Below, one piece after another: positions 6,626 to 56,369 of a stretch of 64,000 bases of DNA. The notes under the pieces are model-generated. The model was not told the DNA's origin. It was given only the letters and a program-made list of their open reading frames with translations, and ran no database searches. How positions within the stretch are numbered: position 1 is the first letter of the stretch; each line of letters opens with the position of its first letter. Source of the DNA: Phytophthora colocasiae (Eukaryota > Oomycota > Peronosporomycetes > Peronosporales > Peronosporaceae). Made by a program: the position numbers and the translations under genes. The DNA lies in assembly GCA_018806915.1 (NCBI GenBank), contig JAGKQI010000093.1, forward strand, positions 930,001 to 994,000, given 5' to 3'.

Positions 6626-6639
6626 CCCCTCCAAACCGG
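6626..6639 (+). repeat. piggyBac 1 left TIR
   Basis: CCCCTCCAAACCGG, a perfect inverted match to 12083-12096, directly after TTAA. Confidence 0.95.
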
Positions 6640-6705
6640 TGTGCTGCATAAGGCAGCATTACGATTCTGCTTATGCTGCATTAATGCAACATAAGCAAAA
6701 ATAGA
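6640..6705. promoter_or_regulatory. Left subterminal repeats of piggyBac 1 (TGCTGCAT motifs)
   Basis: Contains GTGCTGCATAAGGCAGCAT and TTATGCTGCATTAATGCA, so at least three copies of TGCTGCAT or its complement in 60 bp. Similar motifs recur at 11900-12066. Subterminal repeats of this kind are usual transposase binding sites. From 6706 to the transposase start at 6979 I see only presumed promoter DNA. Confidence 0.6.
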
Positions 6706-6978
6706 CTTGGAGTTTGTATGGAGTGTATCGTCCCATGTCAAGAGGCATACAAACTTTAAGAGAAACTAAGACTCGTTTCTGTTCATTGGCGATCCTGTAC
6801 CATCTCTGGAACGGGAGGGGTAGGGCGGAATATTTAGACTTTCAAAAAGGCTGTTCGAGAGGTATCCGCAGATCGCGCTCCCCGATCATGACATTGGTAA
6901 GGTTTTGGATGCCGACATTGCCCACCGCCACTCATTTCAGATTTTTCGCGCGCCAGGACCTCAAGCAGACCAAGAGCG

Positions 6979-9900
6979 ATGTCGCGGCGTAACGTCGTGC
7001 CTGTCCAGGAGGTCACGGCACACGACCTGAACTTCAGGTCCGTATGGCGGGAGCTGAAGGGCGAAGGGTGGTACAGAAAGCCCCCACCAAGGAGAAGCCT
7101 GGACGATCGCTATCGCTACGTGCCGCCGGGCGGAAGCATGGACGGCGTCAAAGGAACGGACTTCTTTCTCGGGGAGCAAGAGGTTTTGGAGTTCTACGCC
7201 AAAGGTAAGATTAGTTGACGTGTGTGTGACTCGTGCTGGCTATCTAACATTACTGATGATGAGTACAGGGCTGCGGGACCGAGCTCAAACCCGCCAGCCA
7301 TCGCTCCAAGAAGCCGCTGACGCCCAACTTGCTGCTGCGGCCGCTCTGGCTGAGAGAACACACGGCCCCATGATCGAGGCCGCTGCTGCCCGTGAGCGAA
7401 ATAGCACTGCAGACGCGCCTGTGGAACCTGCAGAAGCGCCGATGGATCCATCTACACCAGTTCTGCCCCAACGGCAAAGCCGTGTACGACGCTCTCTGTG
7501 TCTACCAGAGTCAACTGCTGCTGAGACCCCGTCTCGGTCGTCCCAGCGCCAAAGGTCCCCACTGATCGCGACTTCTCCTCACGTCGAGAATAGCGCCGAA
7601 ATGGACGATGACGTGGACTCTGTAGAGTCTGTTGACACCGCCAATCAATCCGTGCAGTCTGAGGACGATGACGAAGAGTCAGCGTACGTTGCCACGCCTA
7701 CTCCAAGCGAGACCCCCCTTTATGCTGACGACTCTATGCAAGTGAGAAGTGGTGATGAACGCGGTAGGGAGCATGTTGTGCTGCATATTGTGTTGCATGT
7801 CGTGCTGCATATTGTGTTGCATGTCGTGCTGCATATTTTTTTTTATAAAAAATAATTGTGCTGTATTTTTATCTGACATGGTACCGTGTGATCTGTAGAT
7901 GAGGGCGGTGACCAAGAAAGCTCTACTCTTGGATCACAGCTGATTGCCGACAACGAAGATTCATTGAATGAGGTTGGTAATGAAGAAGACAATGCAGACT
8001 ATGGAGCCATGGAGTCCGGTGATGATGCAGAAAAAGATGACATTGCCGATGAAGATGATCCTGACGGTGCTCAAGAAGGATATTACCTACCGGACGATGA
8101 TGACGACCTAGAAATCACCGAGAGCGAGATTGCTGCTGAAGTATTATTTGCGGAAAAGTTTCTCGACAGCTTTGGGGGTGCGGATGAAGTGCTTGCTGGG
8201 AATTTGAAGAACACTGTCTTGCGAGATATGGCAGTTAATGGTTGGGAGGCCGTTGAGGAACCCGACACACATGACCACATGATGATGCCGTACGAGCCCG
8301 TGGACAACACAAGCAGTTATCCTGGTTTGCGTCAAGGTTACTCCGGTCCTACAGCTGAAGCTCTTCGAAATGCTGACTCCCCAGTAGCGTTGTTTTTCTT
8401 TTTCTTGCCGGTGGTGCTGTGGCAGCACATTGCAGTGTGCTCAAATCAGTATCACCGGGAGATGCTTCCCCTACGTGTCGACGAGACGTATAAGCGCTAC
8501 CGGCGCAAGCAGCGCTTGAACCCAGACCTGCCAAAGAAAACCAAGCGCGATATACGGCATGATCTGGAAGGTATGAAGCCTATACACCCCCACGAGTTGT
8601 GCCGTTTTGTGGGACTCCTTATTGCTCGTACAATCGCCCCAAACCGCGAAAAGTTGGCGAACCATTGGAAGATCACAGATGAGGGTGCCATTTCGAGAGG
8701 CGCTTTCGGCTCTGTACTGCGGCGTGACCGCTTCATGGAGATATCACGGAATCTCCACTTCAACCCAAACGATGACCCGCGGGCTCGCACAGACAGAGCC
8801 TGGAAAATTCGCAAGGTCGTAGAGGTATTGCAGCGGACATTTGCGCGTGGGTATGTGGCACCTGCGCACTTGGCGTTTGACGAAGCGATTCTCCCTGAGC
8901 CGGTCCTCGTTCAACAAGATGAGAGTGTACATGAAAGACAAGCCTCATCGGTGGGGTACCAAGCTCTTCATGTTGTGCAGTGCCGTGACGGCTTACTGCA
9001 TCCGGTACGTTTTTTTTTACGTCGTTGATTTTCTTATGCTGCACAATGCGACTTATACTTACATATATTGTTTCTGTTTATCTGCATACATGCAGCTTTG
9101 AAGTGTACTGTGGGAAGAAAGAGCACTCCAGCGATGCACACAAGACTGACATGCAGTCAGGACCGGCAGCTGTCGTCAGAAACCTTTAGCGGTGTTCGGA
9201 CCCGAGGCACGAAGGCTAGGCATGCGCCTGGTTGTCGTTGACCGGTTTTACACGTCAGTGGCGTTGGCTATCCAGCTACTTCTCATGGGGTTCTATTGCG
9301 TCGGTACCATCATGACGAATCGCTTAGGGTACTGCAAAGCTGTTGTGGAGAAAAAGAAGTCACGTCCAGCCTCGATACCTCGTGGCTCATTCAAAATGGC
9401 TCGTTCTAAGCTAGTGACGAACATGGCAGCTATCAGTTGGTGGGATTCCCGGCCGGTTCACTTCCTGTGCACTGGAGGTAGTCTCGATATCGATCGGGTT
9501 ATTCGTCAAGACGGTGCGACGCAGGTGGAAGTGCCGTGCCCTCGGGTGGTGAAGGATTACCACGCCTTCATGGGAGGCGTGGACGTCCATGACCAGCTGC
9601 GCTTGCAGCGTTACTCGCTGCAAAGAGCTTTGCGCTTCCGCAAGTACTATAAGTCGCTGGTGCTAGGCCTGATTGACCTAGCAATTGTCAATGGATACAT
9701 AGTTCACAAGGCCTACCACAAGCACAAGACATCGCGCCCCCTCAGTCACGTAAAGTACATGAAAAAACTGCATTTGCAGCTCTGCCAACTGCAGTCCAGC
9801 GATATGTACGAAGGCAACACGTTTGGAATCCAGCAACCAGCCACCCCCAGCACACCAGCGCCTCCCGTACCCCCCGCAGCAGAAGAAGTACATGTTCCCC

Positions 9901-10271
9901 AGCAGCTGGAAAAATGGCGCGACCAGACCACCCAGAGGAAACGACGTCAACGCGCTTGCAAGGTGTGCTCCTATCTGCATCCAGATGGTGTGCGCGCCGC
10001 AACAAGCAAGTTTTGCTGTCGCTCTTGCAACAAAACGGGTCCTATCTACCTGTGCATGAAGCCGCGTCGCAAGATTCGCGAGATCTCGATGACGTGCTGG
10101 GATATCTGGCACCGAGAGTGGTTGAATGGTAGTCTTGCTCCTGTCGACACTGGAAGAACGATTCGTGTGCGTCGCGAAGACGATATGGAGATGAGTGAGA
10201 CGCCGACAGCTCCTGCTACACCGGCTACCCCGGCTAGCAAGAGACGCCGCACTACGCACGATGCTGCATAA
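6979..10271 (+). pseudogene. piggyBac transposase 1, four exons, two frameshifts
   Basis: Catalyses excision and insertion at TTAA. Exons fit GT-AG rules: 6979-7204 (start MSRRNVVPV), 7269-7763 (low-complexity, acidic), 7899-9004 and 9096-10271. The RNase H-like core has three aspartates at the expected places: FDEAIL near 8880, VVVDRFYTSVALA near 9235 and MGGVDVHDQL near 9580. The C-terminus is a Cys/His-rich finger (CKVCSYLHPDG, FCCRSCNKTG) typical of piggyBac. The frame is lost twice: near 8895, between FDEAILP and SRSSFNK (about one extra base), and near 9187 (about one missing base). Each side of each break matches the family well. It is therefore either a very young pseudogene or an intact gene with two assembly errors. 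It is only remotely similar to the transposase at 52801-55647. Confidence 0.85.
7778..7837. repeat. 24-bp tandem repeat in transposase intron 2
   Basis: The units at 7778-7801 and 7802-7825 are identical, and a half unit follows. Each contains GTGCTGCATATTG, the same TGCTGCAT core found at the element ends. It lies in the intron 7764-7898. Confidence 0.85.
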
Positions 10272-10495
10272 GTAATAAGCATTTGGTATAGTTTGTTCAA
10301 ATGATTTGCCACTTTTCAACTTAACGGATTCCCTGTTGCTGTTGCCGTGCCAACTGTCCATTTGGTATAGTTTGTTCAAGTGATTTGCCACTATTCAACT
10401 TGAGCTGCTAAAGGAAACTTACAGAAGCATTCAACATTGAGCTGGATCTAAAGGCGAGACCATGCTACACGATACACTTGTTCAAAGATGGTATT

Positions 10496-11563
10496 TCAGT
10501 TAGCATTACGTTTGTATATCCACATGTTCGACGTTGACGTCCAACTGACTGGGACAGCTAACACTTTCCACAGCTTCCATCGTGCACAAAACACTGCTCG
10601 ACAAGATGCCTGATGCCTCGGACATATTTGTTCGCCAAATATAACCACTCGCGCATTCTCATGCAGGCCTAGCTGTTCTTCAATCTGGATCTTGGCACTG
10701 TCTTCAAAAAGGCGATGGTGCGCTAAAATTACGGTTGCTTGACTAAATGGTCCCTCGAAAGCAAGCAGCACGGTGCTAGCGTCTCCAGGAAGTAAATGTA
10801 CCTTCGTGTGATAGTTTTGCATCAGCAAGTCCTTCTCCATTAGCTCTATTCCACGAAAGAGTACTTCGTCTCGCACTTCGATACCGTAGCATTCGGATGC
10901 TGGGGTCTGTAAAGCTACTTGAGCAACCACATTACCAAGACCGCAACCAACGTCGAGGAATACATCGTGCGTTTCAATATCTCCAATAGCTTCAATCACA
11001 GCTGCCACTCCGGCGGAAGTATTTCACCAGCGTTAAGGTGTCGTTTTCCAGATTTTTGGCGAATATCTGCCTTCCTCACTGGTGCAAACAGGCGTTCAAC
11101 GGCTTGCATTGCTGCATCAGGGGTCATTACCCCAGGACCAGCACCACCTACATCTTCCCCATCAGCATATTCATGACCTTCTCCCACCCCAGCACCAGCA
11201 GCGCCGTCGCCGTCGCCGCCTTCTCCCACTCCAGCACCAGCAGCGCCGTCACCGTCGCCGCCTTCTCCCTCCACCACCAGCAGCGCCGTCACCGTCGCCG
11301 CCTTCTTCCACACCAGTAACGCCTGATGCGCCTTGTGTCGTAGCACACTTGAAAAAAAAGCATGGGGGGAAGTCCGCGAGAGAGCTACCGTAGGTATTCT
11401 TCATCAGTGCGTGAAGGCGCCAACGAAGGTCCGCAGCGGAGTGCTTCGCGCACCTCATCCTGCGACGCACATCAGACCACGATATACGCGAACCACGCCG
11501 TTCATACACAGCGGCCAGCTGCACAAGCCTCTTGTCTTGACCGACTGAAAATTTTGATCGCAT
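10496..11563 (-). pseudogene. SANT/Myb domain plus DOT1-like methyltransferase, piggyBac 1 cargo, frameshifted
   Basis: Starts at the ATG at 11563. The first 65 residues form a SANT/Myb-like domain (DKRLVQLAAVYERRG, ISWSDVRRRM, then ADFPPCFF). A Gly/Asp/Ala repeat linker follows, where about two bases are missing in one repeat unit near 11270 and the frame shifts. The second half is a class I methyltransferase of the DOT1 family: LNAGEILPP, VFLDVGCGLGNVVAQVA (SAM-binding motif I) and YGIEVRDEV (acidic residue after strand 2). A further one-base break lies near 11008, just before the SAM motif. Known DOT1 enzymes methylate histone H3 Lys79. The usual NNF-type motif is replaced here by LAHHRLFED, which questions activity. 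The same two-domain architecture occurs in the other piggyBac element (49981-51364). The gene is convergent to the transposase. Confidence 0.75.
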
Positions 11564-11889
11564 AGCAGCTTCACCGATGAGGAGAATTACTTTGTTTCAG
11601 TATGCATTTTGGTAAAGCACTTCGAGTCAGTGACAAATCGTGCCATGAAGTGTATCCACCTCGAGTGCAATCATTGATGCAGTCTACTGATCAGGTCACT
11701 CATTTGCACTTTGTATAGAACAGAAAACGCACGAATAATTAGCCTGCTGATTGCGATACCTGTAGGGGTGACACCCGTTCCTATCTACCTCATTTTTGTA
11801 TGGGAAGTTTTAGTGTCTAGTTTTCTGAAATCGAGAATGTCTACGACTCACAAAAAAGAACGCGGCAGCCCTGGCACTGTTCAGAGCCT

Positions 11890-12066
11890 GGCTATGCTGT
11901 GTCGCATAATGCAGCTTTAGCCTGCTGCAAATGGCTTGTTATGCAGCATTGCGACTGTTTAGGATTGTCTATGGTCAACTGCACTCGTCCTTACCCGAAC
12001 ACCATTCCCTACCCAATCCCTTTATATACAAACGTCAAGTCTAATTATGCTGCATATGCAGCATAA
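11890..12066. promoter_or_regulatory. Right subterminal repeats of piggyBac 1
   Basis: Contains CATAATGCAGC near 11905, TTATGCAGCATT near 11940 and TTATGCTGCATATGCAGCAT near 12047-12066, the same core as the left end. The stretch 11564-11890 between the DOT1-like gene start and these repeats holds no gene I can support; it is presumably that gene's promoter. Confidence 0.6.
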
Positions 12067-12082
12067 AAAATCAAAATCGGCT

Positions 12083-12096
12083 CCGGTTTGGAGGGG
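12083..12096 (-). repeat. piggyBac 1 right TIR
   Basis: CCGGTTTGGAGGGG, a perfect inverted match to 6626-6639, directly before TTAA. Confidence 0.95.
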
Positions 12097-12214
12097 TTAA
12101 GTTAAGTATACTTATTTAAATAAGTATAATTAAATCAAATATAACTAAATTAACTGCAAAATAGCGTAAGATGAGAACTGTTATTGAATCTGGCATAAGC
12201 CAATTATGGACCTC
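12097..12214 (-). repeat. Probable continuation of Gypsy LTR right of the piggyBac
   Basis: Begins with the second TTAA target copy (12097-12100). It is AT-rich and contains a perfect 22-bp palindrome at 12107-12128 centred on TTTAAA, in keeping with the hairpin-rich Gypsy sequence. No clear LTR end is visible; a CA near 12156-12157 is one candidate. The assignment rests on position only. Confidence 0.35.
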
Positions 12215-13665: not shown

Positions 13666-13997
13666 TGTTGGAATTCGTATTGATCTGGCCTAAAACAGTA
13701 AGGAGCTGTTGCTAGCGGTAAAAGGACCAGCGACAGCGGAGAGAAGACCAGCAGCAGCGGAACCAGCAGCAGTGTGTCCAGCGGGAGCGGCAACTAGGAC
13801 GTTGGGGAAGCTACGGGTGAGAACGCTGGAGAAGATGAAGCACAGGCCGTACATGTAGCACCTGAAGGAACGAGCTGAGCTCGTTGAGATTGCTAGCAGA
13901 ACAGAGAGGAACAAGGCTAACAATCAATCTATCAGTCTTTCATTTCCTTTGAGGTGCACAAGTCAAACTACTGGCCTAACCGATCCACTTCCCAACA
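13666..13997 (+). repeat. Copia LTR 1
   Basis: 332 bp, ends TGTTGG...CCAACA, preceded by target copy CTATC. Confidence 0.95.
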
Positions 13998-14013
13998 GGG
14001 TTATGAGCCCAAG
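13998..14013 (+). other. Copia primer-binding site, copy 1
   Basis: GGGTTATGAGCCCAAG follows the LTR directly. It is complementary to the anticodon arm of initiator methionine tRNA (GGGCTCATAACCC) rather than to a tRNA 3' end. Priming from an internal tRNA fragment is established for Drosophila copia. The same sequence is at 19257-19272, and a near match is at 60355-60370. Confidence 0.7.
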
Positions 14014-14047
14014 CCCTGGCTTTCCCGCCCAACGGAACGAGTCTAAG

Positions 14048-17000
14048 ATGTCCAAGCCGATGAAGTACACGTCAGAAGGCATCCCAAAGAACTGGGATGG
14101 GAAGGACTGGCAGACGTATAAGTGGGCCATGAGGACAGTGTTCAAGGAACAAGATTTGTTAAAGATCGTAGACCGACAGCTGACGAAGTCAATGCTCTCC
14201 ACCGAAGAGACTGAGGCTGACTTTGACAAGAAGCAGACAAAGATCTTGAGGATGATCGGTACATCAGTGCCACCAGAGATCTTACACCAAATCCGGACGG
14301 CGGAGGTCGGATCGGATATGTGGGACGCTCTGTGTGATTTATTCGAGAACAAAGTGAACAAGACAGTCAAGGTTCATACAATCCGTCGACTAGTGACAGA
14401 GTTGTGGAACACAAAACTTTTACCTGGTGGCGATGCAAATCTACACCTCTGTAAGATGTTCAACTTGCGCACTGAGCTGGTGAATATGCAGTACACTCTC
14501 GAAGATGTCGACATGGTCGAAATGTTGCTCGAGAGTCTGCCTGAGCTAGCGGAGTTCGAGACTTTGAAGTCGTCAGTTCGCTATGGAGCCGATACTAGTG
14601 TATACACACCTACCAAGGTCCGTGAACTCATAACGAGCAGCAGCATCACGTCAGACTGAGTTTCACGGTAAGCGTGGGACTGGAACGGGGCAGAATATGA
14701 GTCAGAAAAGCGCTGGAAACAAAGCTGGTGCTAAAGGAAAGCCCGAAAATCAGCAACAGCAGAAGCTTACCCTTGGGTCCAAAGGATATAAGGAGGGTAG
14801 GAAGTGTTACGCGTGTGGTAGTGGAGACCATATCAGAGCTAACTGCCCACAGAAGTCGAAACAGAACGCCATCAGTGCAGGGGACAATGACCAGAAGCAG
14901 AAACAGCGAGGTCTCTGTACGCTTCGACGCACAAACGCGATCACCAAGATCCCACGTCATGACGAAGTATCAGGACAAGGAGTGGTGACTGGCGTGCTGG
15001 ATGCGGAGCCCAACACGGTTTTTAGTGTTGATTCAAGTGGTCAAGTTCTGGATGTGACAGAAAAAGAGTGCGAAGCTGTCGAGGACAGTACCGTTGGTTG
15101 GTGGTATTTTGATACGGCGTCGAACGCCCATGTGACCGGAAATCGCGCTCAATACGTGAGTTTCACTGAAGATACAACAACCAGCCAAAGTGTGCATGGT
15201 GTCACACCGAACTTAGCATCCAAGATTGCCGGAGTTGGAACTGTTGCTGTGAAAACGTGGGTGGATGGTGTGGAGAAAGTGTTCCACATCGAAGATGTAT
15301 GCTACGTCCCAGACGCGGAGTATGGGTTGTTTTCACCTGGACTTGCACTTAAACAAGGATTTGATTTCAAACAAGAGCATGCGACAATGAACTTTCGAGT
15401 ACTGCTAAGAGGCGAAGAGGTGGCGATCACTACACCGCATGACTCAACGTGGGGCTTCATTGCCGAGTTTACAGCGTCAAAGGAGCAGGCGGAACGTTCA
15501 GGCCCACCAATATGCAATTTCACTGCAGCTGAAGGTGTTGCTCCGTTGAAGACGTGGCATGAGAGACTAGGCCATACATGTCCCTCAGTACCTGAAGACC
15601 ATGGTTGATCAAGGACTCGTCAAAGCGAATGATGCTTAGCCAAAGACAACAGAACCAGGCATGTGATGCCTGGTCACGTTGGCAAGCAGAAGCGAGCCTG
15701 TCGCAGGAAGAAGCTCAACCGCAAAACGCGAGTGCCGAATCAACTTGTATACGCAGACCTACTGATACCAAGTGAGGGTAATGGTACTCGTTACGAGGCG
15801 GTACTGATTATCATGGACGGACACTCAAGGTTCGTCACGATGCATCTGCTAAAGAGCAAGACGGCTGAGGAGGTAAACGCTCGCATCAAGGAGTACGTGG
15901 CCTGGGCGGAACGTCAAGCTCGACGTAGCCAGACTGACGGTGAAGCAGAGATCAAGTACCCTGTTCGACAAATTCTAACGGACAAAGGCGGTGAGTTCGT
16001 AAACTCGATGATAGCGAGCTGGTACGCGAGCAAAGGCATCGAGCACGTAAAAGTGGGGCCGAAAAGCTCTCAGTTGAACTTGTGTGAGCGCGCGCACCAG
16101 TCAATCGTGGAAATGACCAAGTCAATGATGCATCACGCAGGTTTCCCACGTTCATTGTGGCCTGAAGCCCTTCGAAACGCTATCTACGTGAAAAACCGGG
16201 TATACAACAAAGGCACGAACGCTATCCCATTCGAACAAATGTTTGGGAGCAAACCAGACATTCATCATATCAGGACATTTGGGTCGTTGGCGTACGTGCA
16301 CGTCCCCGTAGCACCGGGGAGGCGCAAATATCACGATAACGTCAAACTGGGTTTCGTGCTGGGCTATGCCGAAGATGTTGTTGGATGCAAGGTGTATTTC
16401 CCCGGTGAACACACTGCAAAGTTCGTGCCTGACTTGCGAGTGTCCGAGGACGTCATGTATCGCGATCGTCATACTGTTGATTTGAATGAACCTGATCTGG
16501 AGTCGCTAGTTTTCACAAGAATCTCTGGAAATGTTATCTGTGGTACAAGTGACGATGAAGAAATGGGCACAGCTATAAGTGAGGGTGAACATGAATCTAC
16601 GCGCAGAGAAAGCGTATTCGAGCCTCCAGTTAGTAACGAGACCATGATGTTGGATAACACCTGTGAACTCGAAGAAGGCGCAAGAGTTGAATCAAGTCTC
16701 GGTGAAGTGGACGACCCAAGAGAGTGTATACGGAGACAGGCTGTGAAATGTTGGCTGGTTTAGCTGATACCGGTGGAATTGAAACCGAGTCCGTAGTTGG
16801 AGTACACGGGTCTGTTCTGAGTGAGCAAGAAGATGCAGAGATCTACAGTGAAGCTGCCGAACTTAACAGTGTTCAAGATGACCCATGCTCAGGTAACGAT
16901 CAGGACCAGGACTTCAACACAGAAATAGATGATACATTCACAGTAGCCAGTGTATATGCTCCGGTAAGTGAAAGAAACTGCAGTATCATGGAGGACATGG

Positions 17001-18884
17001 TGGCAGAGTATGACGGTGATCTGGGTGAGTCAAGCACCGGCCAAATGGAGTCGGAAACCGAAACCGGGGGCGAAACTCCAAGACTCACAACTAAACGTAT
17101 TCACCGCGATGAAACGCCCTCTGAAGAAGAGCGAGTAGAGCGCGCAGCAGATAAAACGACACCAAAAAGAACCCGCACTGGACTCAGAGAAGCGCACGAG
17201 CGTCGTCGACCGGGTTACCTGGACGACTACGTTGTGAACGCGTTGCAGAATACAAACCGAGTTCTCGATGTAAATGGCAAACCTATTCGAGCAAGCGATG
17301 TGAAGATCCCACGCAACCATCGTGAAGCCATGCGATCCAAGTTTGCAGATTTCTGGAGACTTGCAGAATTGGAAGAGATGGCAGCACTCAAGGCCAAGGG
17401 AGTCCTCAAAGAAATTCCTGGCTCGGAAATGCCCAAGGATGCTCGTGCCATTAACACAATGTGGGTCTACGCGCTAAAGTCCGACCACCAGGGGTACATT
17501 ATCCGGTTTAAAGGACGGACTGTGGCGCTGGGGAACCACCAGAGGGCCTGGAATTGATTTCCAAGAAACGTTTTCTCCTGTAGCGAGAATGTCTTCGTTT
17601 CGGCTGTTACTGGCACTTGCCGCAGCGTTGAATTTGCTGGTATTCGGTGGAGACATCAACACAGCTTACCTGAACGCGTGGCTCAACATTCCTCAATATG
17701 TGAGATCTATACCAGGTTTTCCGTGTGATATCGATGGCCACGTGTATATGGTGATGCGAGCACTGTATGGACTAAGACAGTCTGGACGCGAATGGAATTC
17801 GGAGCTAAATCAGTGGATGCTGAATCGCGGATTCCAGAGATCGCTGACTGAGCCATGCCTGTATTTCCTACTTGAAGCTGATACAATCGCCTACGTGCTT
17901 ATTTACGTCGATGATATTCTCGTGGCAACAAACCATGAAGACTTCAAGGTGAAGCTCTTCAGCGATCTGAACGAAGTGTATGGAATCAAGGACCAGGGGC
18001 TTCTATCTCAGTACTTGGGAATTGAAGTCAGTCAGACAAGTACGCATATTACTATCCGACAAGAAAAGTATGCACGCGAGATACTACAGAAGTTCGGGTT
18101 CGATGGTGCGCATGCAGTTGGAAATCCCATGGAAACTAACGCGCGACTAGTACCTGTTCAGGATGATGGAGAAAACGATACCAGTTTTCCCTATCGCGAG
18201 GCGATCGGAATGGTGATGTATCTGGCGACTAGCACCAGGCCGGATTTAGCATTTGTCGTGAGCCAGCTGAGCCGCTTCGTGGCAAAACCCTCAACGAAGC
18301 ACGTCGGAACCTTGAAGCGCGTGCTTCGATACCTGGTAGGGACAGTCGACTATGGAATTTCCTACGAAAGAGCGGAACATGTCGACGGTGACGTCGTGCT
18401 TAACGGTTATTGTGACAGCGACTGGGCCAATGATCAAGAATCTCGCAAGAGTACAACGGGATTCGTCTTCACACTTGCCGGTGGCGCAGTTTCCTGGATG
18501 TCAAGAAAGCAAAGCATCGTGGCCTTGTCGACGGCAGAGGCGGAATACATCGCAGCATGTGAAGCAACGATGGAGGCTATCGCAGAAAGCAACATCCTAC
18601 AAGAGATTTTACCGAAGAAAGCTGTGGAATTAAAGCTGGGCATCGACAATCAAGCAGCGCTCATAATGGCTACAAATCCGACTTATAGTCGGCGCACAAG
18701 GCACATCGAGCTGCGTTGGCACTTCGTGCGAGAGCAAGTGGAAAAGGGAGCCATCCATTTGCACAAGATCAAAGGAAATGTTAATCCAGCAGACTTCTTC
18801 ACCAAACCTTTGGACAAAGTTCGGCTAAAGACCCTGTTGCACTTGATCGGGATTGGCAGCCAGAAGGACCTACAGCAACCGTAG
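14048..18884 (+). pseudogene. Copia Gag-Pol, array copy 1, frameshifted
   Basis: Order: Gag (start MSKPMKYTSEGIPKNW; a second ATG lies at 14003 inside the primer site), zinc knuckle CYACGSGDHIRANC near 14810, protease YFDTASNAHVTG near 15105, integrase with WHERLGHTCP near 15560 and QILTDKGGEFVNS near 15970, RT with the intact catalytic YVDD near 17905, and RNase H near 18400-18560 (YCDSDWANDQ, LSTAEAEYIA). Integrase before RT marks Ty1/Copia. Relative to array copy 2 it has one-base changes near 14607, 14633, 14880, 15583, 15627, 15670, 17545 and 17775. It also lacks 16 bp at about 16713. Each change breaks the frame, and at most of these sites copy 2 reads in frame. Confidence 0.92.
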
Positions 18885-18924
18885 TAGTTCTCTTGGTGAT
18901 CGAAGCTATGCTTCGAGAAGGGTG

Positions 18925-19256
18925 TGTTGGAATTCGTATTGATCTGGCCTAAAACAGTAAGGAGTTGTTGCTAGCGGTAAAAGGACCAGCGACAGCGGAG
19001 AGAAGACCAGCAGCAGCGGAACCAGCAGCAGTGTGTCCAGCGGGAGCGGCAACTAGGACGTTGGGGAAGCTACGGGTGAGAACGCTGGAGAAGATGAAGC
19101 ACAGGCCGTACATGTAGCACCTGAAGGAACGAGCTGAGCTCGTTGAGATTGCTAGCAGAACAGAGAGGAACAAGGCTAACAATCAATCTATCAGTCTTTC
19201 ATTTCCTTTGAGGTGCACAAGTCAAACTACTGGCCTAACCGATCCACTTCCCAACA
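18925..19256 (+). repeat. Copia LTR 2 (shared middle LTR)
   Basis: 332 bp. Differs from LTRs 1 and 3 at one position I could find. It is preceded by the polypurine-like GAGAAGGGTG and followed by the primer site. Confidence 0.95.
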
Positions 19257-19272
19257 GGGTTATGAGCCCAAG
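19257..19272 (+). other. Copia primer-binding site, copy 2
   Basis: Identical to the site at 13998-14013, directly after the middle LTR. Confidence 0.7.
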
Positions 19273-19306
19273 CCCTGGCTTTCCCGCCCAACGGAACGAG
19301 TCTAAG

Positions 19307-24156: not shown

Positions 24157-24196
24157 TAGTTCTCTTGGTGATCGAAGCTATGCTTCGAGAAGGGTG

Positions 24197-24528
24197 TGTT
24201 GGAATTCGTATTGATCTGGCCTAAAACAGTAAGGAGCTGTTGCTAGCGGTAAAAGGACCAGCGACAGCGGAGAGAAGACCAGCAGCAGCGGAACCAGCAG
24301 CAGTGTGTCCAGCGGGAGCGGCAACTAGGACGTTGGGGAAGCTACGGGTGAGAACGCTGGAGAAGATGAAGCACAGGCCGTACATGTAGCACCTGAAGGA
24401 ACGAGCTGAGCTCGTTGAGATTGCTAGCAGAACAGAGAGGAACAAGGCTAACAATCAATCTATCAGTCTTTCATTTCCTTTGAGGTGCACAAGTCAAACT
24501 ACTGGCCTAACCGATCCACTTCCCAACA
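24197..24528 (+). repeat. Copia LTR 3
   Basis: 332 bp, preceded by the polypurine-like GAGAAGGGTG and followed by target copy CTATC in the interrupted host exon. Confidence 0.95.
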
Positions 24529-33122: not shown

Positions 33123-33195
33123 ACCGAATACTGTACCTCATATGAAGTACTTCAAGTACTTCAGTACACAACTTGTGAATCGAAAGTTCTGCCAG

Positions 33196-49518: not shown

Positions 49519-49628
49519 ATTATAAGCATATAAAAATATACTAATAGAGAGAGTTTGAGTCTATTTATAGTTGTAACTTTCAGTAACATATCCCTGAAAT
49601 TGTCAGCAGTTTAAGAAAAAAATGTTAA

Positions 49629-49720
49629 CCCTTTCGAGGTCATAGGGTGCATTTTGCCCCCCTTGGTTACAGTTCAAGAAGCACCCATCAAAACGGTCAT
49701 GAAGGGGGGCAATTTGCCCC
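49629..49720. promoter_or_regulatory. Left end of piggyBac 2: TIR and subterminal palindromes
   Basis: The 8-bp TIR CCCTTTCG is followed by GCATTTTGCCCCCC (near 49649) and AAGGGGGGCAATTTGCCCCC (near 49702). The right end has the same motif, so these are probable transposase binding sites. 49721-49980 is presumably the promoter of the DOT1-like gene. Confidence 0.75.
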
Positions 49721-49980
49721 CGTTGACAGAAGTTCAACTGCACATCTCCTTCTGTAATTACGACCAATCATATCATACTATAATTTACGCGATGTGTCAA
49801 ACATCATGGAAATTTATGCACTTAAGTACGAAAACTATCAAGATTGCGTCAGCAAACACTGCTTTAAGTACGTAATTTTGGTGACCATTGAGTGGATCTC
49901 CTGTCTCTGAACTCAGCACTCCTACTAGTATTTCTTTACTGAAACTAAGTCATTTGCCTACCTGTAGTAGCACAGCAATC

Positions 49981-51364
49981 ATGGCCACAACGTTCACTTT
50001 TGAAGATGATAAGGAACTTGTGCAGCAGGCGCGCACCTACGTCGATGCAGGTACAAGGATCGCGTGGGCTAATGTGGCCCATCGTATGCAGCGCACTGGT
50101 CACTGTGTGAAGTCATTGCAGGAGCGACTGCGAACGTTGAAGAAGGCGTGGGGCAATGATATCCGGCGTTTCCCTCCAAGCTTCTACGCAAAAGTGCGCC
50201 GTCCACGTGGTCGGCCACCAGCGGTGACTCGTCAGTTGCGGCTTGGTGCGGCCATTCCGCAAAGACAACGTACAGACACAGGAGATCAAGCACCGCTCCG
50301 AAGCTCTGGCGAATGTGAATCACAATATCTTCCTCCAGCATATCCGCGACATCCTGCTGTAAAAATCCCACCACGACCACCACGTGCACAGCTCCGAGCA
50401 GAAACTCCACGGCAGACCCCCACAACACCACAAGTGGCTCCAGTTCCTCCTCCGACATTGCCTCCATCAAGTAACCTACAACCTACAAGTACGGCACCGT
50501 CGCCACGCCCAGCAGATACTGTTGCTCGTGAAAATTCGCCAGAAGTAACAGACGAATCTCGGCCAACACCTGAAGGCGCCGTCAAACTATTTGCTGTTGC
50601 TGGAGCTTCGCTGGCGTTACGCTCCGCTCGTGATGACGGCGCAGCAGTAACCTCAAGCGACACCAGCAGCAATACGGGATCGACAGACACTTTGGAGGCC
50701 CCAGAAGAAGAACGATCACCCCCAATGGCACCGTCAAGGTGTGAGCAAACTGTAGCAACGATTTTTGCTGACGTTCCTCGTGAAGTGGTTGTCAAGGGCA
50801 CCAACAAGAAGCCCCACCGCAATGCCGGCGAGTTGATGCCATGTGGAATTTCTTCTCTTATCCGTGAGCTGGGTGAACTTGACAATTCGGATATCTTCCT
50901 CGATATCGGTGCCGGGGTCGGGAATGTGGTGGCGCAAGTTGCCCTAGGCACTAACGTGAACAAAGCTATCGGCATTGAAGTTCGCCGCGATTTATACGAG
51001 CTCGGAGTCGCGATGATGTCAAAGTTTACGAGCTCAAGGCGGTTATACGAGAGAGCCCAACTAGTTTGCAAGGACGCCGTCGACCTGCGCATTGCATCTA
51101 CGCCACCATACGCTGACGCATCACGCATCAGTTGTATACTGGAACAATCTCCTCTTCGAACCACAAGCTATCGAACATTTGAAGGATGAGCTTGTTGGTA
51201 TGTTCCTCTTGAGAAAGCTGGTCAGCTCTCTAAATTTCTGCCCGAGACACCGCAACGGCTGTCAAAACCCGTTCTGTCAAGCATTCAAGCTGGTGAAAGT
51301 GTTAGATCTTCCTTGCAGCTGGAAGGCTGATTTCCAACATATATTTTTGTACGAGTCGGACTGA
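49981..51364 (+). pseudogene. SANT/Myb domain plus DOT1-like methyltransferase, piggyBac 2 cargo, one frame break
   Basis: Start ATG at 49981 (MATTFTFEDDKELVQQ). Residues 5-70 are a SANT/Myb-like domain (IAWANVAHRMQRTG, LQERLRTLKKAWG, IRRFPPSFYAKV) followed by an AT-hook-like PRGRPP. A Pro/Ser/Thr linker runs to about 250. The DOT1-like domain follows: HRNAGELMP, IFLDIGAGVGNVVAQVA (SAM motif I), IGIEVRRDLYELG, and VVYWNNLLFEP, matching the catalytic NNF-type loop. Then come IEHLKDELVGM and a Cys-rich tail CPRHRNGCQNPFC. The frame changes at 51116-51129, where ACGCATC is repeated in tandem; one copy would keep the frame from ADAS into VVYWNN. Without that 7-bp duplication the gene is open to 51364. 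The order of domains is that of the gene at 11563-10496. Histone H3 Lys79 is the known DOT1 target; the target here is inferred. Confidence 0.82.
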
Positions 51365-51435
51365 GTTGACGTTCATAAGGAAACAGAACAATATATATTT
51401 TTTGCCTTTCACATTGTATACTTTACTCAAGTGAC

Positions 51436-52439
51436 TTGCCATTTAGTTGCCTGTTCCTCAAGAAGAGAGAGTGTCCAGCTACTTTAGCAGCCAAGGACGT
51501 CTTCCTTGGGGCGAAGGTGCTGATCTACGGTTGTCACTTCGAGCTGCAGGACTATCTGGACCCGTACATGACTGGGAAATTGGGACGCGAGCAACAGAAA
51601 TCCGTTCTGGAGATCTAAGCTTGCATGATATATCGTGTCGACGCAGTACTAAACTTCCTCTTGCACCAGACGTTCGCGTTCTCGGCTGTGAAGATGATGC
51701 AGGTGGGCGAACCACTTGCGGCGAAACTGTACAAGCTGCAACGAGATACTGAGGATTTAGAGGTGCGGATTAACCAGTTGACTAGTTCCCCCATCGTTGC
51801 TATGGAGCTCGTTCAGGAAAACTGTCTTGAGAAACTCAAGCAGGTTGTGGCGAGTTTGAGCGCACGCTTCAATGCTCAACCTGGGAATTCGAGAGCACTT
51901 CGTCGGTCCTGGAAGCACAACAGCTACCCAGCCTTTACTTTGAGACTCTTCACTCTCCGACGACAGTGTTTGAGAATTGTACGTGCTGTGTGGTGCTTTC
52001 TCGTGTGGTCAAGGAAGGCTTAGCTGGAGAGGTGGTATCCGATATCCAGGACGACGGTGGAATACTATAGAGCTGTTCATCCTTGATCGCACCACTGCTC
52101 CTGGAAGTCTACGAAGGCGTCGTACCGCACTTCAACGAACCTGTCATTCATCACTGGCCCATGTCTAGCCATGGAGCTGGTGGGCAACATTCACAAGACG
52201 TTGTCACGCAGTTCCGTGCTAGTGCCGGTCCTTGGGATATCGAAATGGCTAAAGAGCTGAAACCGCAGACCATCCGCGCCAAATTCGGTCATGATCGTGA
52301 ACGTAACGCCGTCCATTGCGCTGATCTCGTTGAGGATGGCGTCCTAATTCTTCGACACCTAGTCAAATGCAGCCTACAAGCTATCGCGTGCTCTGCGGTT
52401 GAAGTAAAGACCAAGATATTGAAGCAAATGGACGAGTAG
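51436..52439 (+). pseudogene. NME7: NME7-like nucleoside diphosphate kinase fragment captured in piggyBac 2
   Basis: Fragments in several frames match the order of NME7, an axonemal protein with a DM10 domain and two NDK domains. 51436-51600 gives KRECPATLAAKDVFLGAKV and GCHFELQDYLDPYMTGKLG, as in DM10 domains. Near 51940-52060 is FENCTCCVVLSRVVKEGLAG, matching the start of the second NDK domain. 52095-52370 gives LEVYEGVVPHFNEPV, FRASAGPWDIEMAKELKPQT, IRAKFGHDRERNAVHCADL and VEDGVL. The first NDK domain seems absent or unrecognisable. Many stops and frame changes make it non-functional. It lies between the two element genes, inside the TIRs. A captured host gene piece is the likely origin. 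52440-52800 shows no gene. Confidence 0.72.
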
Positions 52440-52800
52440 AAGCCACACTTCGCTGATTTCCTCCAGAATTGCGAATGGAACTGGACGACTTCTTCTTGTG
52501 AGTTTAAGCGGGTCATCTCGTTCGTTTGCAGTCCTCGTGGCCTTCTGGAGCCTTCAGTGTCAATATCCAGAGGCTCAGCGGTCTATTTCGCTGGAGATGG
52601 CAATGAAAAAGACGTTGGAGAGAAAGTAGGAGCGTTGGATCATACACGCGCTCAGTACGTCTAGCAGGCTTTGAACTTGTGCTACCAGTTCAGTGATTGA
52701 TGCGTTTTGTTCGGTGCAACAGACTGAATCGCGATCTTCGACACCAAACTATGTATACTGCATTTATTAGCATATTTAGATCAAGATAACTACCCACAAC

Positions 52801-55647
52801 TTACAAAACGATGGATCTTACTACTGAACGGCTAGCTCCGACGGCACCAGTCCTCTCGTCAGGACTTGGCTCTTCTTGATCTTCGCTTGCACGTTGACTG
52901 CTCTTTAGTTTGTATAGTTCAGAACTCGTACGGGTCTTTCCTCTCTGCGAGAAGAGCTTCTTGGGGAGGTAGTAGCGATGATATTTCTCCCAACAAGTCC
53001 AGGTAGTTTGTGGGCATGCGTAGGGCTTGTCGGAGACATGTACATTCTGGCAAAGGCAGACGTTGTGTAACACGCAAACAACCGTGACTTCAGTAGCATA
53101 GCGCTCTTCCCAACGGCAAACGACGCACTTCCTCCGCTTGCGATTCATGTCGGTGAAAAACTGCTTTGAGGAGACAACCGAACACCTATTTTGGGGACTT
53201 CCAGAGCTTGCCATACCATTTGTTGTCTGGGCAATCCATACCGTGCTCGACGGAGATGCCTGTTCCGAAATATCTTCGCTTGGGACGCTGTCAGCGCAGA
53301 ACATAAGGCGCTCACTGGGTGCCTCCTTCCACTTCCCAGACAACAACTCGGAACACAGCTGAACAACGAAGTCTCGGTGTGGATCACGCGCCTTACTCAG
53401 ATCCAGTGCCAGCCTCCGCGTTAAATACGCATTAGCTCTAGCAACATCGATGAGCGCTAATGCAAGCTTCTTGTGCCACTTTTTGAACGAGTGACCGTCC
53501 GACAGCGAAAACCGGGCACGAATTTGATCAAGACGATCCACACCCTGCATACTGGCGTTGTATTCCTTGATGCACGTCGGTGCTGAAAAGCTTCGTTTTT
53601 CTGCTCGCACTTGTCGGGTTACTGTAGTGATAGACGACGGGTCTGCGTTTGATATCACCGTCACGATGGAGCTGTCATACCAAGACGCTGCAACGAGTGA
53701 GTGATCGACGGAAACTCCTTGGCGAGAGTTACCACGGGAACAATCTTTCTTCTCCAAGAGTACATGACGCGGAAAGTGTGAACTTGTCTTCCGCACCGTC
53801 CCGCGAGCGTAGAGTCCCTTGATACGTAGTGCCATCAGCAACTGTACTGAAGTGTAGTAATTATCGGAGTTGATGATCCGACGGGTGGAATACAGCGGGC
53901 GAACCACTTCTAGTACACACTTCCGAATTGAGGACATCTCTCCAACTTCATCACTCAATCTCTGAGCCTCTTCCATCGATAAAACCCCTTCAAGACGCTC
54001 CGTGATATTGCTCGCGCAATGCAATCGAAAATTTAACGAAATCCAACTCGTAGCGCAGCACAACATGTAGATTCGGAAGTGATACTTCCCCGTCGGCTTC
54101 ATCGGATTATATACAATGAGTGGCTTGCCGTACTTTGACCGACAAGCGACGCTGGCTTCGTCAAGTGCAACGTTGCGGCCGATCTCCACATATTTTGCCC
54201 CGGTAGTCTTCAATAGGTTCAGCAATGGACGGATCCTTGCAGCCTGATCACGAGTGCCCGAGTTGGTTTCAACACATTGGAAGCAGAAAACCTTCCGCAG
54301 GATTTTGAACCGACGCAGTGGCATCACGTCGTCGAGCCCAACCGATGATCCACCCAAGATCGAGTTCTCTATTTGTGTACCCCAGTAGTTAGCGTATTCG
54401 CCTTTGTCGATAAGAGCCATGTAGAGTAGGATCCCCAAAAATATCATGACTTCATCTAGGGTAAACGGTGTCCCGACTGCGATGCTGTTTTGACGAGCAT
54501 AGGCATTCGTCTCTCCAACAACCTGCTGCCAGAACGAAACCGGAACGTACGCGAAAAAACTTGACGATGCGGAGTGCTGAAAGATATGTTTGAATTCTGG
54601 TCGCAACCGTGTCTTCGTAGATCCGTCAGCATGTTGATACAGATCTGAGGGAGCGTCACACTTTGCTTCAGGCTCAAATCGGATGCTTTTGATAGCCTCT
54701 ACCTCTGCTAGTGAGATTGGAAGTTCAACCGGTGGCTCGTAGGACTCCATGTACTCCTCCATGAGGTCAGTGTCGTCATCAACATGGACATCCTCGCCAT
54801 CACCAACAGCACACAAGCGGCCCCATCCAACACCAGTAGAGCGCCCGTGTAAAGCACGATAGTTTGTGTTGCCTCGCTGCACGGCGCTAAGAGTCAGGGT
54901 TTCCACGTGGTTTTGGAACTGCGAATCCAACCAGTTTATCTGGAACAACGACTGCTTCAATACTCGGCAAACTCTTCCAACCAGGTACGCACTCCCGACG
55001 CCAACGTATTTCTTCTTCTGCGTAATAAATCCCTCCTTCGAAGGAGAAAATGCAACGAGTGTGTCTACATACATAGCCAACACTGACGGTAACGTTTTTT
55101 TCTGGGTAGCAGAGCCTTTGGTTGTCGGTGCATTACATGTTGCGACTGCAGGGCGTGGCGTAGCTGGTGATGCCTCACCAGGCGCTACCGTTGAATCGGT
55201 TGCCAGTGCGACAGCGGCTGGAATTGATGGCGGTCTCGTAGTGGCAACAGGCCCGCGTTCTTCAACACCTGCTAATGGGATCGTTGGTGAGGCTTCATCA
55301 ACAGTGGCTTCTTCAGCCAAGACTTGATCGAGACTTCTTCTGGAGGGGGCCTTGCGTTTGGAAGTTACGGAGACTGGTTCTGGTTGGCGGCTTCGTTTGA
55401 CGCCTGGTTGTGGAGGCTTTGGCTTGTTCTTCGAGCCTTTTGGGCGGCCTCGCTTCCGCTTAGCAGGCCCACCGGTATTTTCTTCTTCGTTGTTTGTCTC
55501 TAGCCTGGCTGTGCTGGCTGGGTTTCGCTCTTGTGCCGTTTGCATAACTTCGCCTGCCGTTGGTGCTTCAGAGTGAGTATCTGTGAGGGCAATGACAGCG
55601 TTCTCTGCATCGCGACCTGCCTCGGGTCCTTGCCGACACGTTGCCAT
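52801..55647 (-). CDS. piggyBac transposase 2, intact
   Basis: One exon of 948 residues, ATG at 55647 (MATCRQGPEAGRDAENA). The N-terminus has an AT-hook-like KRKRGRPKGSKNKPKPP near residues 63-80 and long low-complexity stretches. About residues 365-470 is the insertion-rich start of the transposase core (FTLDEVMIFLGILLYMALI). The three catalytic aspartates are in NVALDEASVACRS (about 490), RIINSDNYYTSVQLLMAL (about 600) and NASMQGVDRLDQI (about 705). The C-terminal Cys-rich finger (CVVCRWEERYATEV, NVCLCQNV, CPQTTWTCW) is at about 855-905. No break is seen, so this element could be mobile. It is only weakly similar to the transposase of piggyBac 1, which points to an old split. Confidence 0.93.
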   Translation of the reverse strand: MATCRQGPEAGRDAENAVIALTDTHSEAPTAGEVMQTAQERNPASTARLETNNEEENTGGPAKRKRGRPKGSKNKPKPPQPGVKRSRQPEPVSVTSKRKAPSRRSLDQVLAEEATVDEASPTIPLAGVEERGPVATTRPPSIPAAVALATDSTVAPGEASPATPRPAVATCNAPTTKGSATQKKTLPSVLAMYVDTLVAFSPSKEGFITQKKKYVGVGSAYLVGRVCRVLKQSLFQINWLDSQFQNHVETLTLSAVQRGNTNYRALHGRSTGVGWGRLCAVGDGEDVHVDDDTDLMEEYMESYEPPVELPISLAEVEAIKSIRFEPEAKCDAPSDLYQHADGSTKTRLRPEFKHIFQHSASSSFFAYVPVSFWQQVVGETNAYARQNSIAVGTPFTLDEVMIFLGILLYMALIDKGEYANYWGTQIENSILGGSSVGLDDVMPLRRFKILRKVFCFQCVETNSGTRDQAARIRPLLNLLKTTGAKYVEIGRNVALDEASVACRSKYGKPLIVYNPMKPTGKYHFRIYMLCCATSWISLNFRLHCASNITERLEGVLSMEEAQRLSDEVGEMSSIRKCVLEVVRPLYSTRRIINSDNYYTSVQLLMALRIKGLYARGTVRKTSSHFPRHVLLEKKDCSRGNSRQGVSVDHSLVAASWYDSSIVTVISNADPSSITTVTRQVRAEKRSFSAPTCIKEYNASMQGVDRLDQIRARFSLSDGHSFKKWHKKLALALIDVARANAYLTRRLALDLSKARDPHRDFVVQLCSELLSGKWKEAPSERLMFCADSVPSEDISEQASPSSTVWIAQTTNGMASSGSPQNRCSVVSSKQFFTDMNRKRRKCVVCRWEERYATEVTVVCVLHNVCLCQNVHVSDKPYACPQTTWTCWEKYHRYYLPKKLFSQRGKTRTSSELYKLKSSQRASEDQEEPSPDERTGAVGASRSVVRSIVL

Positions 55648-56194
55648 CTCACGTGACTTCTTGCGGGATTGGATTGTGTCAAAAGCATTGCGTCCGTCGG
55701 CTTTCTATAAAGTTGTACAAGATCTAATTCGATAGAATAACAGAGTAAAATATCATCTTATATCATTTCAAAAGTAAGGTGATAGAATTTCAAAATTCCA
55801 TACTGAAATTAAGTCAATTACCACTAAAACGTACTCAAGTGCAAAACTGGCTTCCACGTCCAAACACAGGCCTATTGTTGATACATCTACGCCGTAAATA
55901 TAATGCTCCTAGCTAGTAGCTAAGCTACACCCTACATTACCTAAGACGAAGAAGTGCACTGGCAGCGTACACGGTGTCCGAGGTCCAGCTCAAGCGGTGC
56001 CGTAAGGAATAGAGCGGGACTCGTAATTTATCTTGTATCCACCTCTGTCTGTCTCTGGTTTTTGTGCATTGCGTAAACAAGCTGATTCACAGCTTGACCA
56101 ATGAAAAAACTCGCCGTCAACTTTGCTCATCAATTCAAAAATATCAGCCAATGAAAAAAATGCTAAAAAAATACTGAAGAGAGTACCGTGGCTT

Positions 56195-56369
56195 ATGAAG
56201 GGGGGCAAAATGCCCCCCTTCATCTTCCAATCAACAGCTGTGCAGAAAGGCTCTGATCAGGCAAGTACCGTGCTTTATGAAGGGGGGCAAAATGCCCCAC
56301 TTGATTTATTAACATGCCAACTTTGTATACCATAGTAGCCAAAGAGAATAGGCTGTGTTCGCGAAAGGG
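56195..56369. promoter_or_regulatory. Right end of piggyBac 2: subterminal palindromes and TIR
   Basis: TATGAAGGGGGGCAAAATGC occurs near 56195 and again near 56276. The first copy is completed to a perfect palindrome (AAGGGGGGCAAAATGCCCCC), and the TIR CGAAAGGG lies at 56362-56369. The stretch 55648-56194 between the transposase start and these repeats shows no gene and presumably holds the transposase promoter. Confidence 0.75.

What the first reader, a model, noticed from the sequence alone, without database searches (positions are those of the whole stretch)
6626..56369. Two unrelated-looking piggyBac elements both carry a SANT-DOT1-like methyltransferase gene, convergent to the transposase
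Seen: element 1 (6626-12096) and element 2 (49629-56369) each have TTAA flanks, their own TIRs and subterminal repeats, and strongly divergent transposases. Inside each is a second gene with the same two-part design: an N-terminal SANT/Myb-like domain ending in a FPPxF motif, a low-complexity linker, and a DOT1-like SAM domain (FLDxGxGxGNVVAQVA, GIEVR). Orientation relative to the transposase is the same. Known: DOT1 methylates histone H3 Lys79, a mark tied to transcription and resistance to silencing. Inference: this is a conserved accessory gene of an oomycete piggyBac lineage, perhaps directed to element DNA by the SANT domain to keep chromatin open or to choose targets. I know of no description of such a system, though I could not search the literature.
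Basis: partly seen in the sequence, partly recalled or inferred. Interest (0 to 1): 0.93.

Follow-up and report, generated by a model that had tools for sequence, protein, structure and literature searches.

The report
Jumping genes carrying a histone methyltransferase
In this water mould genome (most likely a Phytophthora), cut-and-paste jumping genes of the piggyBac type repeatedly carry a second gene for a DOT1-type enzyme joined to a predicted Myb/SANT-like DNA-binding domain; the protein is predicted to methylate histones on the element's own DNA and would likely shield it from silencing.

Summary
Both window elements are TTAA-flanked piggyBac units (6622-12100, 49625-56373) with a transposase holding all four catalytic Asp and, convergent to it, a SANT-DOT1 gene. 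Near-identical copies elsewhere share these ends but not the flanks, so the gene moves with the element. Of 134 DOT1 loci in the 92.5-Mb genome, 90 lie within 8 kb of a known transposase (random placement: mean 9.1, maximum 21), 82 on its 3' side. Of 23 further stretches read, 21 hold transposase sequence. A host DOT1 without SANT is 97% identical to Phytophthora citrophthora's. Cargo DOT1s form one clade apart from host DOT1s and largely, not wholly, follow the transposase tree. Few dN/dS estimates are unsaturated; they suggest purifying selection. The predicted structure matches DOT1L/Dot1. Corrections: both window copies of the gene are frame-broken; convergence is common, not universal; element 1's nearest diverged transposase relatives lack the gene. 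Precedents exist (SET enzymes in Phytophthora Harbinger/MuDR elements, fungal TET/JBP elements, VANC); ten searches found no DOT1-bearing piggyBac. Whether the mark opens or silences chromatin is open: in Ectocarpus H3K79me2 marks silenced transposons.

The parts
6622..12100 (.). Element 1: piggyBac unit, TTAA to TTAA inclusive, 5479 bp
   Evidence: TTAA plus perfect 14-bp TIR; copy L025 is 97.0% identical over exactly 6622-12100 with unrelated flanks
6626..6639 (+). Element 1 left TIR CCCCTCCAAACCGG
12083..12096 (-). Element 1 right TIR
7964..10268 (+). Element 1 transposase, catalytic part in two open pieces (7964-9025, 9192-10268); an N-terminal piece starts at about 6982 (exons not tested)
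   Evidence: Pfam PF13843 2e-15 and 2.9e-17; all four Asp present
11351..11554 (-). Element 1 SANT/Myb-like domain of the accessory gene
   Evidence: profile match E 7e-22, element coordinates 4730-4933; translation
10502..11127 (-). Element 1 DOT1 domain (in two overlapping frames, so frame-broken)
   Evidence: profile matches 4e-71 and 2e-9; Pfam DOT1 1.5e-10
11177..11316 (.). 42-bp tandem repeat coding the low-complexity linker between SANT and DOT1 of element 1
   Evidence: translations
6641..6700 (.). Element 1 left subterminal TGCTGCAT palindromes
11899..12064 (.). Element 1 right subterminal TGCTGCAT/ATGCAGCA repeats
49625..56373 (.). Element 2: piggyBac unit, TTAA to TTAA inclusive, 6749 bp
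   Evidence: TTAA plus TIR; copy L029 97.9% identical, alignment 49609-56379, with other flanks
49981..50193 (+). Element 2 SANT/Myb-like domain
   Evidence: profile match 3e-33; AlphaFold model of 49981-50235, pLDDT 82, three main helices
50725..51358 (+). Element 2 DOT1 domain, frame break at about 51101-51123
   Evidence: profile matches 4e-48 and 8e-36 in two frames; Pfam DOT1 3.4e-11
52804..55647 (-). Element 2 transposase, one open frame of 948 aa
   Evidence: Pfam PF13843 3.1e-48, residues 368-741; four Asp
49645..49727 (.). Element 2 left subterminal palindromic repeats (AAGGGGGGCA type)
56182..56305 (.). Element 2 right subterminal palindromic repeats

Best explanation
Both elements are piggyBac transposons that carry, besides the transposase, an accessory gene for a SANT/Myb-like-DOT1 fusion protein, which is predicted to bind the element's own ends and methylate nucleosomal histone H3 (likely lysine 79) there, and would thereby likely keep element copies open to transcription and transposition. 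Shown here: the gene lies inside the TTAA/TIR unit and moves with it; the architecture recurs beside many transposases of several diverged clades in one genome; the sampled cargo DOT1s are one clade separate from host DOT1; and the methyltransferase domain has the predicted DOT1 fold with conserved SAM-binding residues. Indicated by few data: purifying selection. Inferred: that the SANT/Myb-like domain recognises family-specific subterminal repeats, that the product is H3K79 methylation, and that the outcome is anti-silencing. A likely history is one capture of an oomycete DOT1 domain fused to a Myb/SANT-like domain, then diversification with the transposases, with loss or transfer in some lineages.
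Confidence: 0.5

Rival explanations
1. Self-restraint: the element-encoded DOT1 writes a repressive H3K79me2 domain over its own copies, limiting copy number, or silences competing elements, as H3K79me2 appears to do on transposons in brown algae.
For: In Ectocarpus intact transposons are enriched for H3K79me2, coverage of most of an element goes with low expression, and large H3K79me2 domains cover a silent viral insert (passages). Oomycetes and brown algae are both stramenopiles.
Against: A gene that only restrains its carrier is hard to keep under purifying selection, which the few unsaturated pairs suggest. H3K9me2 and H3K27me3 are said to be absent in Ectocarpus, so its use of H3K79me2 may be special. 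Nothing was measured in an oomycete.
Confidence: 0.25
2. Other substrate or step: the fusion methylates the transposase, another protein or a different histone residue, or acts at the transposition step (end recognition, target choice) rather than on element transcription.
For: The residue aligned with DOT1L N241 and its neighbour vary between cargo families. A Myb/SANT partner of the transposase is a known layout in PIF/Harbinger elements (recalled).
Against: The predicted fold and most motifs are those of DOT1; 42 of 55 rows keep the N241-like Asn.
Confidence: 0.15
3. Passenger: a host DOT1 was captured once and is carried along without benefit to the element.
For: Most transposase loci have no DOT1 match nearby (179 of 272). 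Many copies, including both in the window, are broken.
Against: dN/dS 0.13-0.25 in the four least diverged pairs at synonymous sites, the SANT fusion kept in most cargo copies sampled and absent in 32 host-type proteins, and partly matching transposase and DOT1 trees.
Confidence: 0.07
4. Independent captures: different piggyBac families took DOT1 from the host several times.
For: The transposases of elements 1 and 2 are strongly diverged, and a host DOT1 sits about 2 kb from an element-1-like transposase (C28), so nearness of host gene and element does occur.
Against: 51 cargo rows are one side of a branch with SH-aLRT 100 against 11 host rows that reach to Albugo, and most share the SANT fusion.
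Confidence: 0.03

Closest known systems
[quoted passage not shown] passages of the citing paper seen, originals not seen)
   Same: Oomycete DNA transposons that carry a histone lysine methyltransferase gene
   Different: Harbinger and MuDR, not piggyBac; SET fold, not the unrelated DOT1 (SAM-dependent Rossmann-like) fold; so a different target residue is expected
TET/JBP dioxygenase-bearing DNA transposons of fungi (Kojima 2025, PMC12730594; passages seen)
   Same: DNA transposons with an accessory chromatin/DNA-modifying enzyme, proposed to escape silencing, and transferred between element lineages
   Different: Acts on 5-methylcytosine in DNA, not on histones; the paper holds no mention of piggyBac or DOT1
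VANC anti-silencing proteins of Arabidopsis VANDAL elements (PMC5735166, PMC10398659; search listing and starts of abstracts seen)
   Same: Element-encoded, sequence-specific proteins that counter silencing
   Different: VANC is not a DOT1 methyltransferase (recalled); here anti-silencing is only inferred
Host DOT1/KMT4 (yeast Dot1, human DOT1L, and the host-type DOT1 of oomycetes)
   Same: Catalytic fold and motifs; the oomycete host gene also shares the C-x-R-H...C...C cluster with the cargo genes
   Different: Host-type DOT1 has no SANT match (0 of 32 proteins) and forms its own clade
Myb-like protein of PIF/Harbinger elements (recalled)
   Same: Second gene with a Myb/SANT DNA-binding domain beside the transposase
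   Different: No methyltransferase domain there (recalled)

Membership tests
piggyBac superfamily | DDE_Tnp_1_7 transposase domain | tested here: met
   Both elements, E 2e-15 to 3.1e-48, over cut-off
piggyBac superfamily | Catalytic Asp triad plus the fourth conserved Asp (positions recalled) | tested here: met
   All four D in 22 of 22 transposases with letters at those columns, elements 1 and 2 included; 3 further rows have no letters there
piggyBac superfamily | TTAA target duplication and TIRs starting CCC | tested here: met
   Both window elements and 5 of 18 fetched stretches tested
piggyBac superfamily | Precise TTAA excision | not tested
   No empty-site comparison was run
DOT1 (KMT4) methyltransferases | Pfam DOT1 domain over cut-off | tested here: met
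   41.4 and 43.5 bits against 23; 9 of 9 and 24 of 24 relatives match at the E-value limits used
DOT1 (KMT4) methyltransferases | DOT1 fold | tested here: met
   Relative P0001, not a window protein: DOT1L/Dot1 are the best PDB matches; 9ne1 TM 0.83 by target, rmsd 3.1
DOT1 (KMT4) methyltransferases | SAM-binding motif I and acidic residue | tested here: met
   D 58/58, G 57/58, G 57/58, G 58/58, E 57/57 cargo rows
DOT1 (KMT4) methyltransferases | Asn of the NN motif (DOT1L N241-like, numbering recalled) | tested here: inconclusive
   N in 42 of 55 cargo rows; element 1's family has H, element 2's family N
DOT1 (KMT4) methyltransferases | H3K79 methylation activity | not testable with these tools
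   Needs an enzyme assay
SANT/Myb-like DNA-binding domain | Family profile match | tested here: inconclusive
   Over cut-off in one relative, P0061 (26.5 against 22.9 bits); weak matches in some others; none in the element 2 protein; element 1's SANT part was not scanned with Pfam
SANT/Myb-like DNA-binding domain | Three-helix Myb fold | tested here: inconclusive
Transposon-encoded anti-silencing systems (VANC-like) | Counteracts silencing of its own element | not testable with these tools
   Needs expression and chromatin data; a published stramenopile case points the other way
Transposon-encoded anti-silencing systems (VANC-like) | Binds element-specific noncoding repeats | not testable with these tools
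   Subterminal repeats exist and differ between the two elements; binding untested

The most novel reading that the evidence does not exclude
In Phytophthora the writing of H3K79 methylation has been taken over by transposons: one captured DOT1, fused to a DNA-reading Myb/SANT-like domain, spread on piggyBac elements to around a hundred loci against one host DOT1 ortholog, giving each element family its own sequence-addressed histone writer that sets the chromatin state of its copies and of nearby genes. It would be the first transposon-borne, non-SET histone methyltransferase system that I know of.
Probability: 0.35. Interest if true: 0.92.

Novelty: new variant of a known kind. Interest (0 to 1): 0.8.

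Why it matters
DOT1 is the histone lysine methyltransferase class without a SET domain (PMC9224773, passage), and elsewhere a genome usually has one or a few genes for it (recalled). Here 134 loci match DOT1 and at least 94 of them, the host gene left out, have a piggyBac transposase close by (89 by coordinates, plus 5 by reading), so mobile elements may decide where this mark goes. In a related stramenopile, Ectocarpus, the mark is tied to transposon control, so these elements make it directly testable whether transposons write their own chromatin state to escape silencing or to limit themselves. It also bears on annotation: some Phytophthora entries named as histone-lysine methyltransferases are SANT-DOT1 proteins of this kind (for example P0004) and are probably transposon cargo, so counts of chromatin enzymes in oomycetes may be inflated.

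Tried and rejected
Chance co-occurrence: rejected by the random-placement control (90 observed, mean 9.1, maximum 21 of 500). The control uses only the contig spans that hold hits, 66.3 Mb. The 272 transposase loci are. I did not enter all rows: one search lists 150 of 154; only the upper half was entered;-69 rows that repeated loci already held, and some short pieces, were left out. The tools also score only the best candidates.

Separate captures from host DOT1: not supported by the tree. For that tree I left out cargo rows with under 140 filled columns and four near-copies (L004, L005, L006, L012), and kept 11 of 33 host-type rows. DOT1s of other stramenopiles were not included.

Strict congruence of the trees: not met. 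Main clades agree, but L024 conflicts, L018 and L023 stand apart from L034/L035/L022/L017/L031 in the transposase tree and join them in the DOT1 tree, and the Mantel result weakens when near-copies are removed (19 of 5000 for 11 loci, 12 of 5000 for 9 loci without the element 1 branch, 24 of 5000 for another 9).

Strict convergence as a rule: rejected; 55 convergent, 27 same strand 3', 5 and 3 on the 5' side, of 90.

That every relative carries the gene: rejected.

Weak pairs: in L034 (counted among the 90 and the 19) the transposase is 7.7 kb away with ABC-transporter-like and kinesin-like frames between (labels recalled), so it may not be one unit. L021 has DOT1 and an element-2-type end but no transposase. 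L041 has a DOT1 domain without SANT in a host-like setting.

TIR search with 10-mers found none in 13 of 18 stretches; several are cut by the 10-kb limit.

Same units in other collections: viral contigs gave 3 distant DOT1 loci and prokaryote contigs 1; not studied further. Neighbourhoods in other Phytophthora genomes could not be tested.

Gene-in-between search in same-strand elements (L017 family): no clear third gene, but 1.6-kb direct repeats.

Literature: 10 searches, seen as listings. 'piggyBac + DOT1 + oomycete' gave 0 papers; 'piggyBac + Phytophthora + transposon + histone methyltransferase' 0; 'DOT1 + transposase + Phytophthora' 1, on Legionella; 'DOT1 + oomycete + transposable element' 1, on Fusarium; 'three of piggyBac, DOT1, accessory gene, transposon' 46, of which 10 were listed. 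The Repbase Reports issue 'DNA transposons from oomycetes' (2014) is not held and could contain such elements. PMC7341134 (passages) ties expanded gene families in P. megakarya to PiggyBac elements; the words DOT1 and methyltransferase do not occur in its main text.
Full report
What was checked. Both elements exist at the stated places. Element 1 is 6622-12100 and element 2 is 49625-56373, TTAA included, with TIRs CCCCTCCAAACCGG (perfect) and CCCTTTCGAGGTCA/CCCTTTCGCGAACA (3 mismatches of 14). Each holds a DDE_Tnp_1_7 transposase and a DOT1 domain over the Pfam cut-off, in convergent orientation. A profile of the N-terminal part, built from relatives, finds the SANT-like domain in both.

The gene moves with the element. 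Element 1 and locus L025 align at 97.0%, starting and ending exactly at the TTAAs, with unrelated flanks. Element 2 and L029 align at 97.9% over 49609-56379, overrunning the TTAAs by 16 and 6 bp; the printed flanks differ. L033 and L027 are further units of the element 2 family, and L036 one of another family. Complete TTAA/TIR units spanning both genes were found in 5 of 18 stretches tested plus the two in the window.

Genome-wide association. The window's genome has 92.5 Mb in 105 contigs. Pfam DOT1 gives 135 matches, 134 after merging. Transposase loci from seven searches (lower bounds, as only the best candidates are scored and I did not enter every row) merge to 272. 90 of 134 DOT1 loci have one within 8 kb (median gap 1.5 kb). 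Random placement over the contig spans with hits gives a mean of 9.1 and a maximum of 21 in 500 draws. Of the 90, 55 are convergent, 27 are same-strand on the 3' side, and 8 are on the 5' side. One of the 90 is the host gene, so 89 are cargo-type or unread. Five more (L024, L028, L032, L042, L043) were found only by reading the stretch.

Reading stretches. Transposase sequence is present in 19 of the 20 and 2 of the 3. The exceptions are L021, which keeps an element-2-type end, and L041, a DOT1-domain protein without SANT in a host-like neighbourhood. In L034 the transposase is 7.7 kb off and may be separate.

The host gene. The best DOT1 match (L001, C28) is a 511-aa frame without SANT, beside a PEX3-like frame (label recalled; frame seen). 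In the listing of its relatives each named species (Phytophthora, downy mildews, Nothophytophthora, Lagenidium, Albugo) appears once; the nearest is 97% identical, in P. citrophthora. So the genome is most likely P. citrophthora or a close relative. None of 32 host-type proteins matches the SANT profile at E < 0.01; 24 of 27 cargo-type proteins do at E < 1e-5, though these were brought in by a full-length profile that includes SANT. L041 shows that at least one other non-SANT DOT1-domain gene exists.

Phylogeny. 51 cargo rows and 11 host rows split into two sides with SH-aLRT 100. Cargo and host share a cluster C-x-R-H...C...C (51-53 of 54 cargo rows, 32-33 of 33 host rows), whose first part is not in the aligned human DOT1L sequence. 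This suggests that the cargo comes from an oomycete-type DOT1. For 18 loci with both genes, both trees hold {element 1, L025}, {element 2, L029, L033, L027} and {L036, L026, L020, L030}, the last with weaker support in the DOT1 tree. A DOT1 clade of L017, L022, L031, L035, L034, L018 and L023 corresponds to two transposase groups, {L018, L023} and {L034, L035, L022, L017, L031}, whose joining is unresolved. L024 conflicts: its transposase joins element 1's (100/100), its DOT1 does not. Mantel r is 0.41, 0 of 5000 permutations as high; with one locus per near-copy group (11 loci) r is 0.31, 19 of 5000. Against strict co-inheritance, 17 of 17 transposase loci 64-73% identical to element 1's, among the first 22 rows, have no DOT1 match within 8 kb, leaving out one whose neighbour is the host gene. 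So the gene was gained, lost or transferred within that branch.

Selection. Of 55 pairs of DOT1 domains, 45 have saturated dS. The four with the lowest dS give dN/dS 0.25 (L021-L029, dS 0.30), 0.14 (L027-L029, 1.69), 0.13 (L021-L027, 1.82) and 0.13 (L003-L007, 2.11); the other six finite ones, with dS of 2.2 or more, give 0.16-0.36. Only the first is well below saturation.

Catalytic residues. Motif I and the acidic residue are kept in nearly all cargo rows. The Asn aligned with DOT1L N241 (numbering worked out and recalled) is kept in 42 of 55, and replaced by His in 9, including element 1's family.

How it most likely works. The layout is a likely DNA-binding domain joined to a chromatin-modifying enzyme, carried by a transposon with family-specific subterminal repeats. 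That suggests a protein that returns to its own element and sets its chromatin. In yeast, H3K79 methylation keeps SIR proteins off (passage of PMC9224773), so anti-silencing is the favoured outcome (0.5). The contrary case is real: in Ectocarpus H3K79me2 marks silent transposons and a silent viral insert (passages), so self-restraint is the main rival (0.25).

Comparison and novelty. SET methyltransferases in HarbingerS and MuDR elements of Phytophthora and TET/JBP enzymes in fungal elements are known (passages of PMC12730594), and so is VANC anti-silencing (listing). A DOT1-bearing piggyBac was not found in ten searches, but Repbase Reports could not be read. I rate it a new variant of a known kind: a transposon with a chromatin-modifying accessory gene, but with a different enzyme class, element superfamily and DNA-binding fusion.

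Limits. Nothing here shows enzymatic activity, DNA binding, expression or chromatin effect. Both window copies of the methyltransferase gene are broken; copies with open frames exist elsewhere. Adjacency to piggyBac was tested in one genome only; in other species only the protein architecture was seen.

Noticed in passing
L024:5791-7293, L042:2843-4326, L043:5790-7292: An element family with a third gene between transposase and SANT-DOT1, coding a long coiled-coil-like protein (recalled label) on the transposase strand; no Pfam match to the 235-aa piece tried.
   Followed up: partly
L017:2835-4421 and 7337-8925: L017, L022, L031 and L035 share 7.5-10 kb at 97-99% identity, with 1.6-kb direct repeats on either side of the SANT-DOT1 gene: a larger, apparently recent composite unit.
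   Followed up: partly
L001 (C28:744355-747894): The host DOT1 gene lies about 2 kb from an element-1-like transposase (69% identical, C28:747835), perhaps a chance neighbour.
   Followed up: no
L029:1915-1985: The element 2 copy in L029 sits next to an element-1-type end (GGTTGGAGGGGTTAA): adjacent or nested piggyBac insertions.
   Followed up: no
13714-24293: The same 49-bp tandem stretch recurs at 13714, 18973 and 24245, about 5.26 kb apart, with a copia-like gag frame at 13949: perhaps tandem LTR elements sharing LTRs.
   Followed up: no
4594-4886: Four 72-bp tandem repeats inside a retroelement-like frame (4425-5546).
   Followed up: no
L041:4379-5308: A second, non-cargo type of DOT1-domain protein without SANT in a host-like neighbourhood.
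   Followed up: partly
L037, L038, L039: DOT1-like matches on viral contigs (25-28% identical), without study of their context.
   Followed up: no
6982-7216 and L018:5097-6098: The transposases of element 1 and L018 share an N-terminal YRYVPPGG...GTDFFLGE motif although their catalytic parts are strongly diverged.
   Followed up: no
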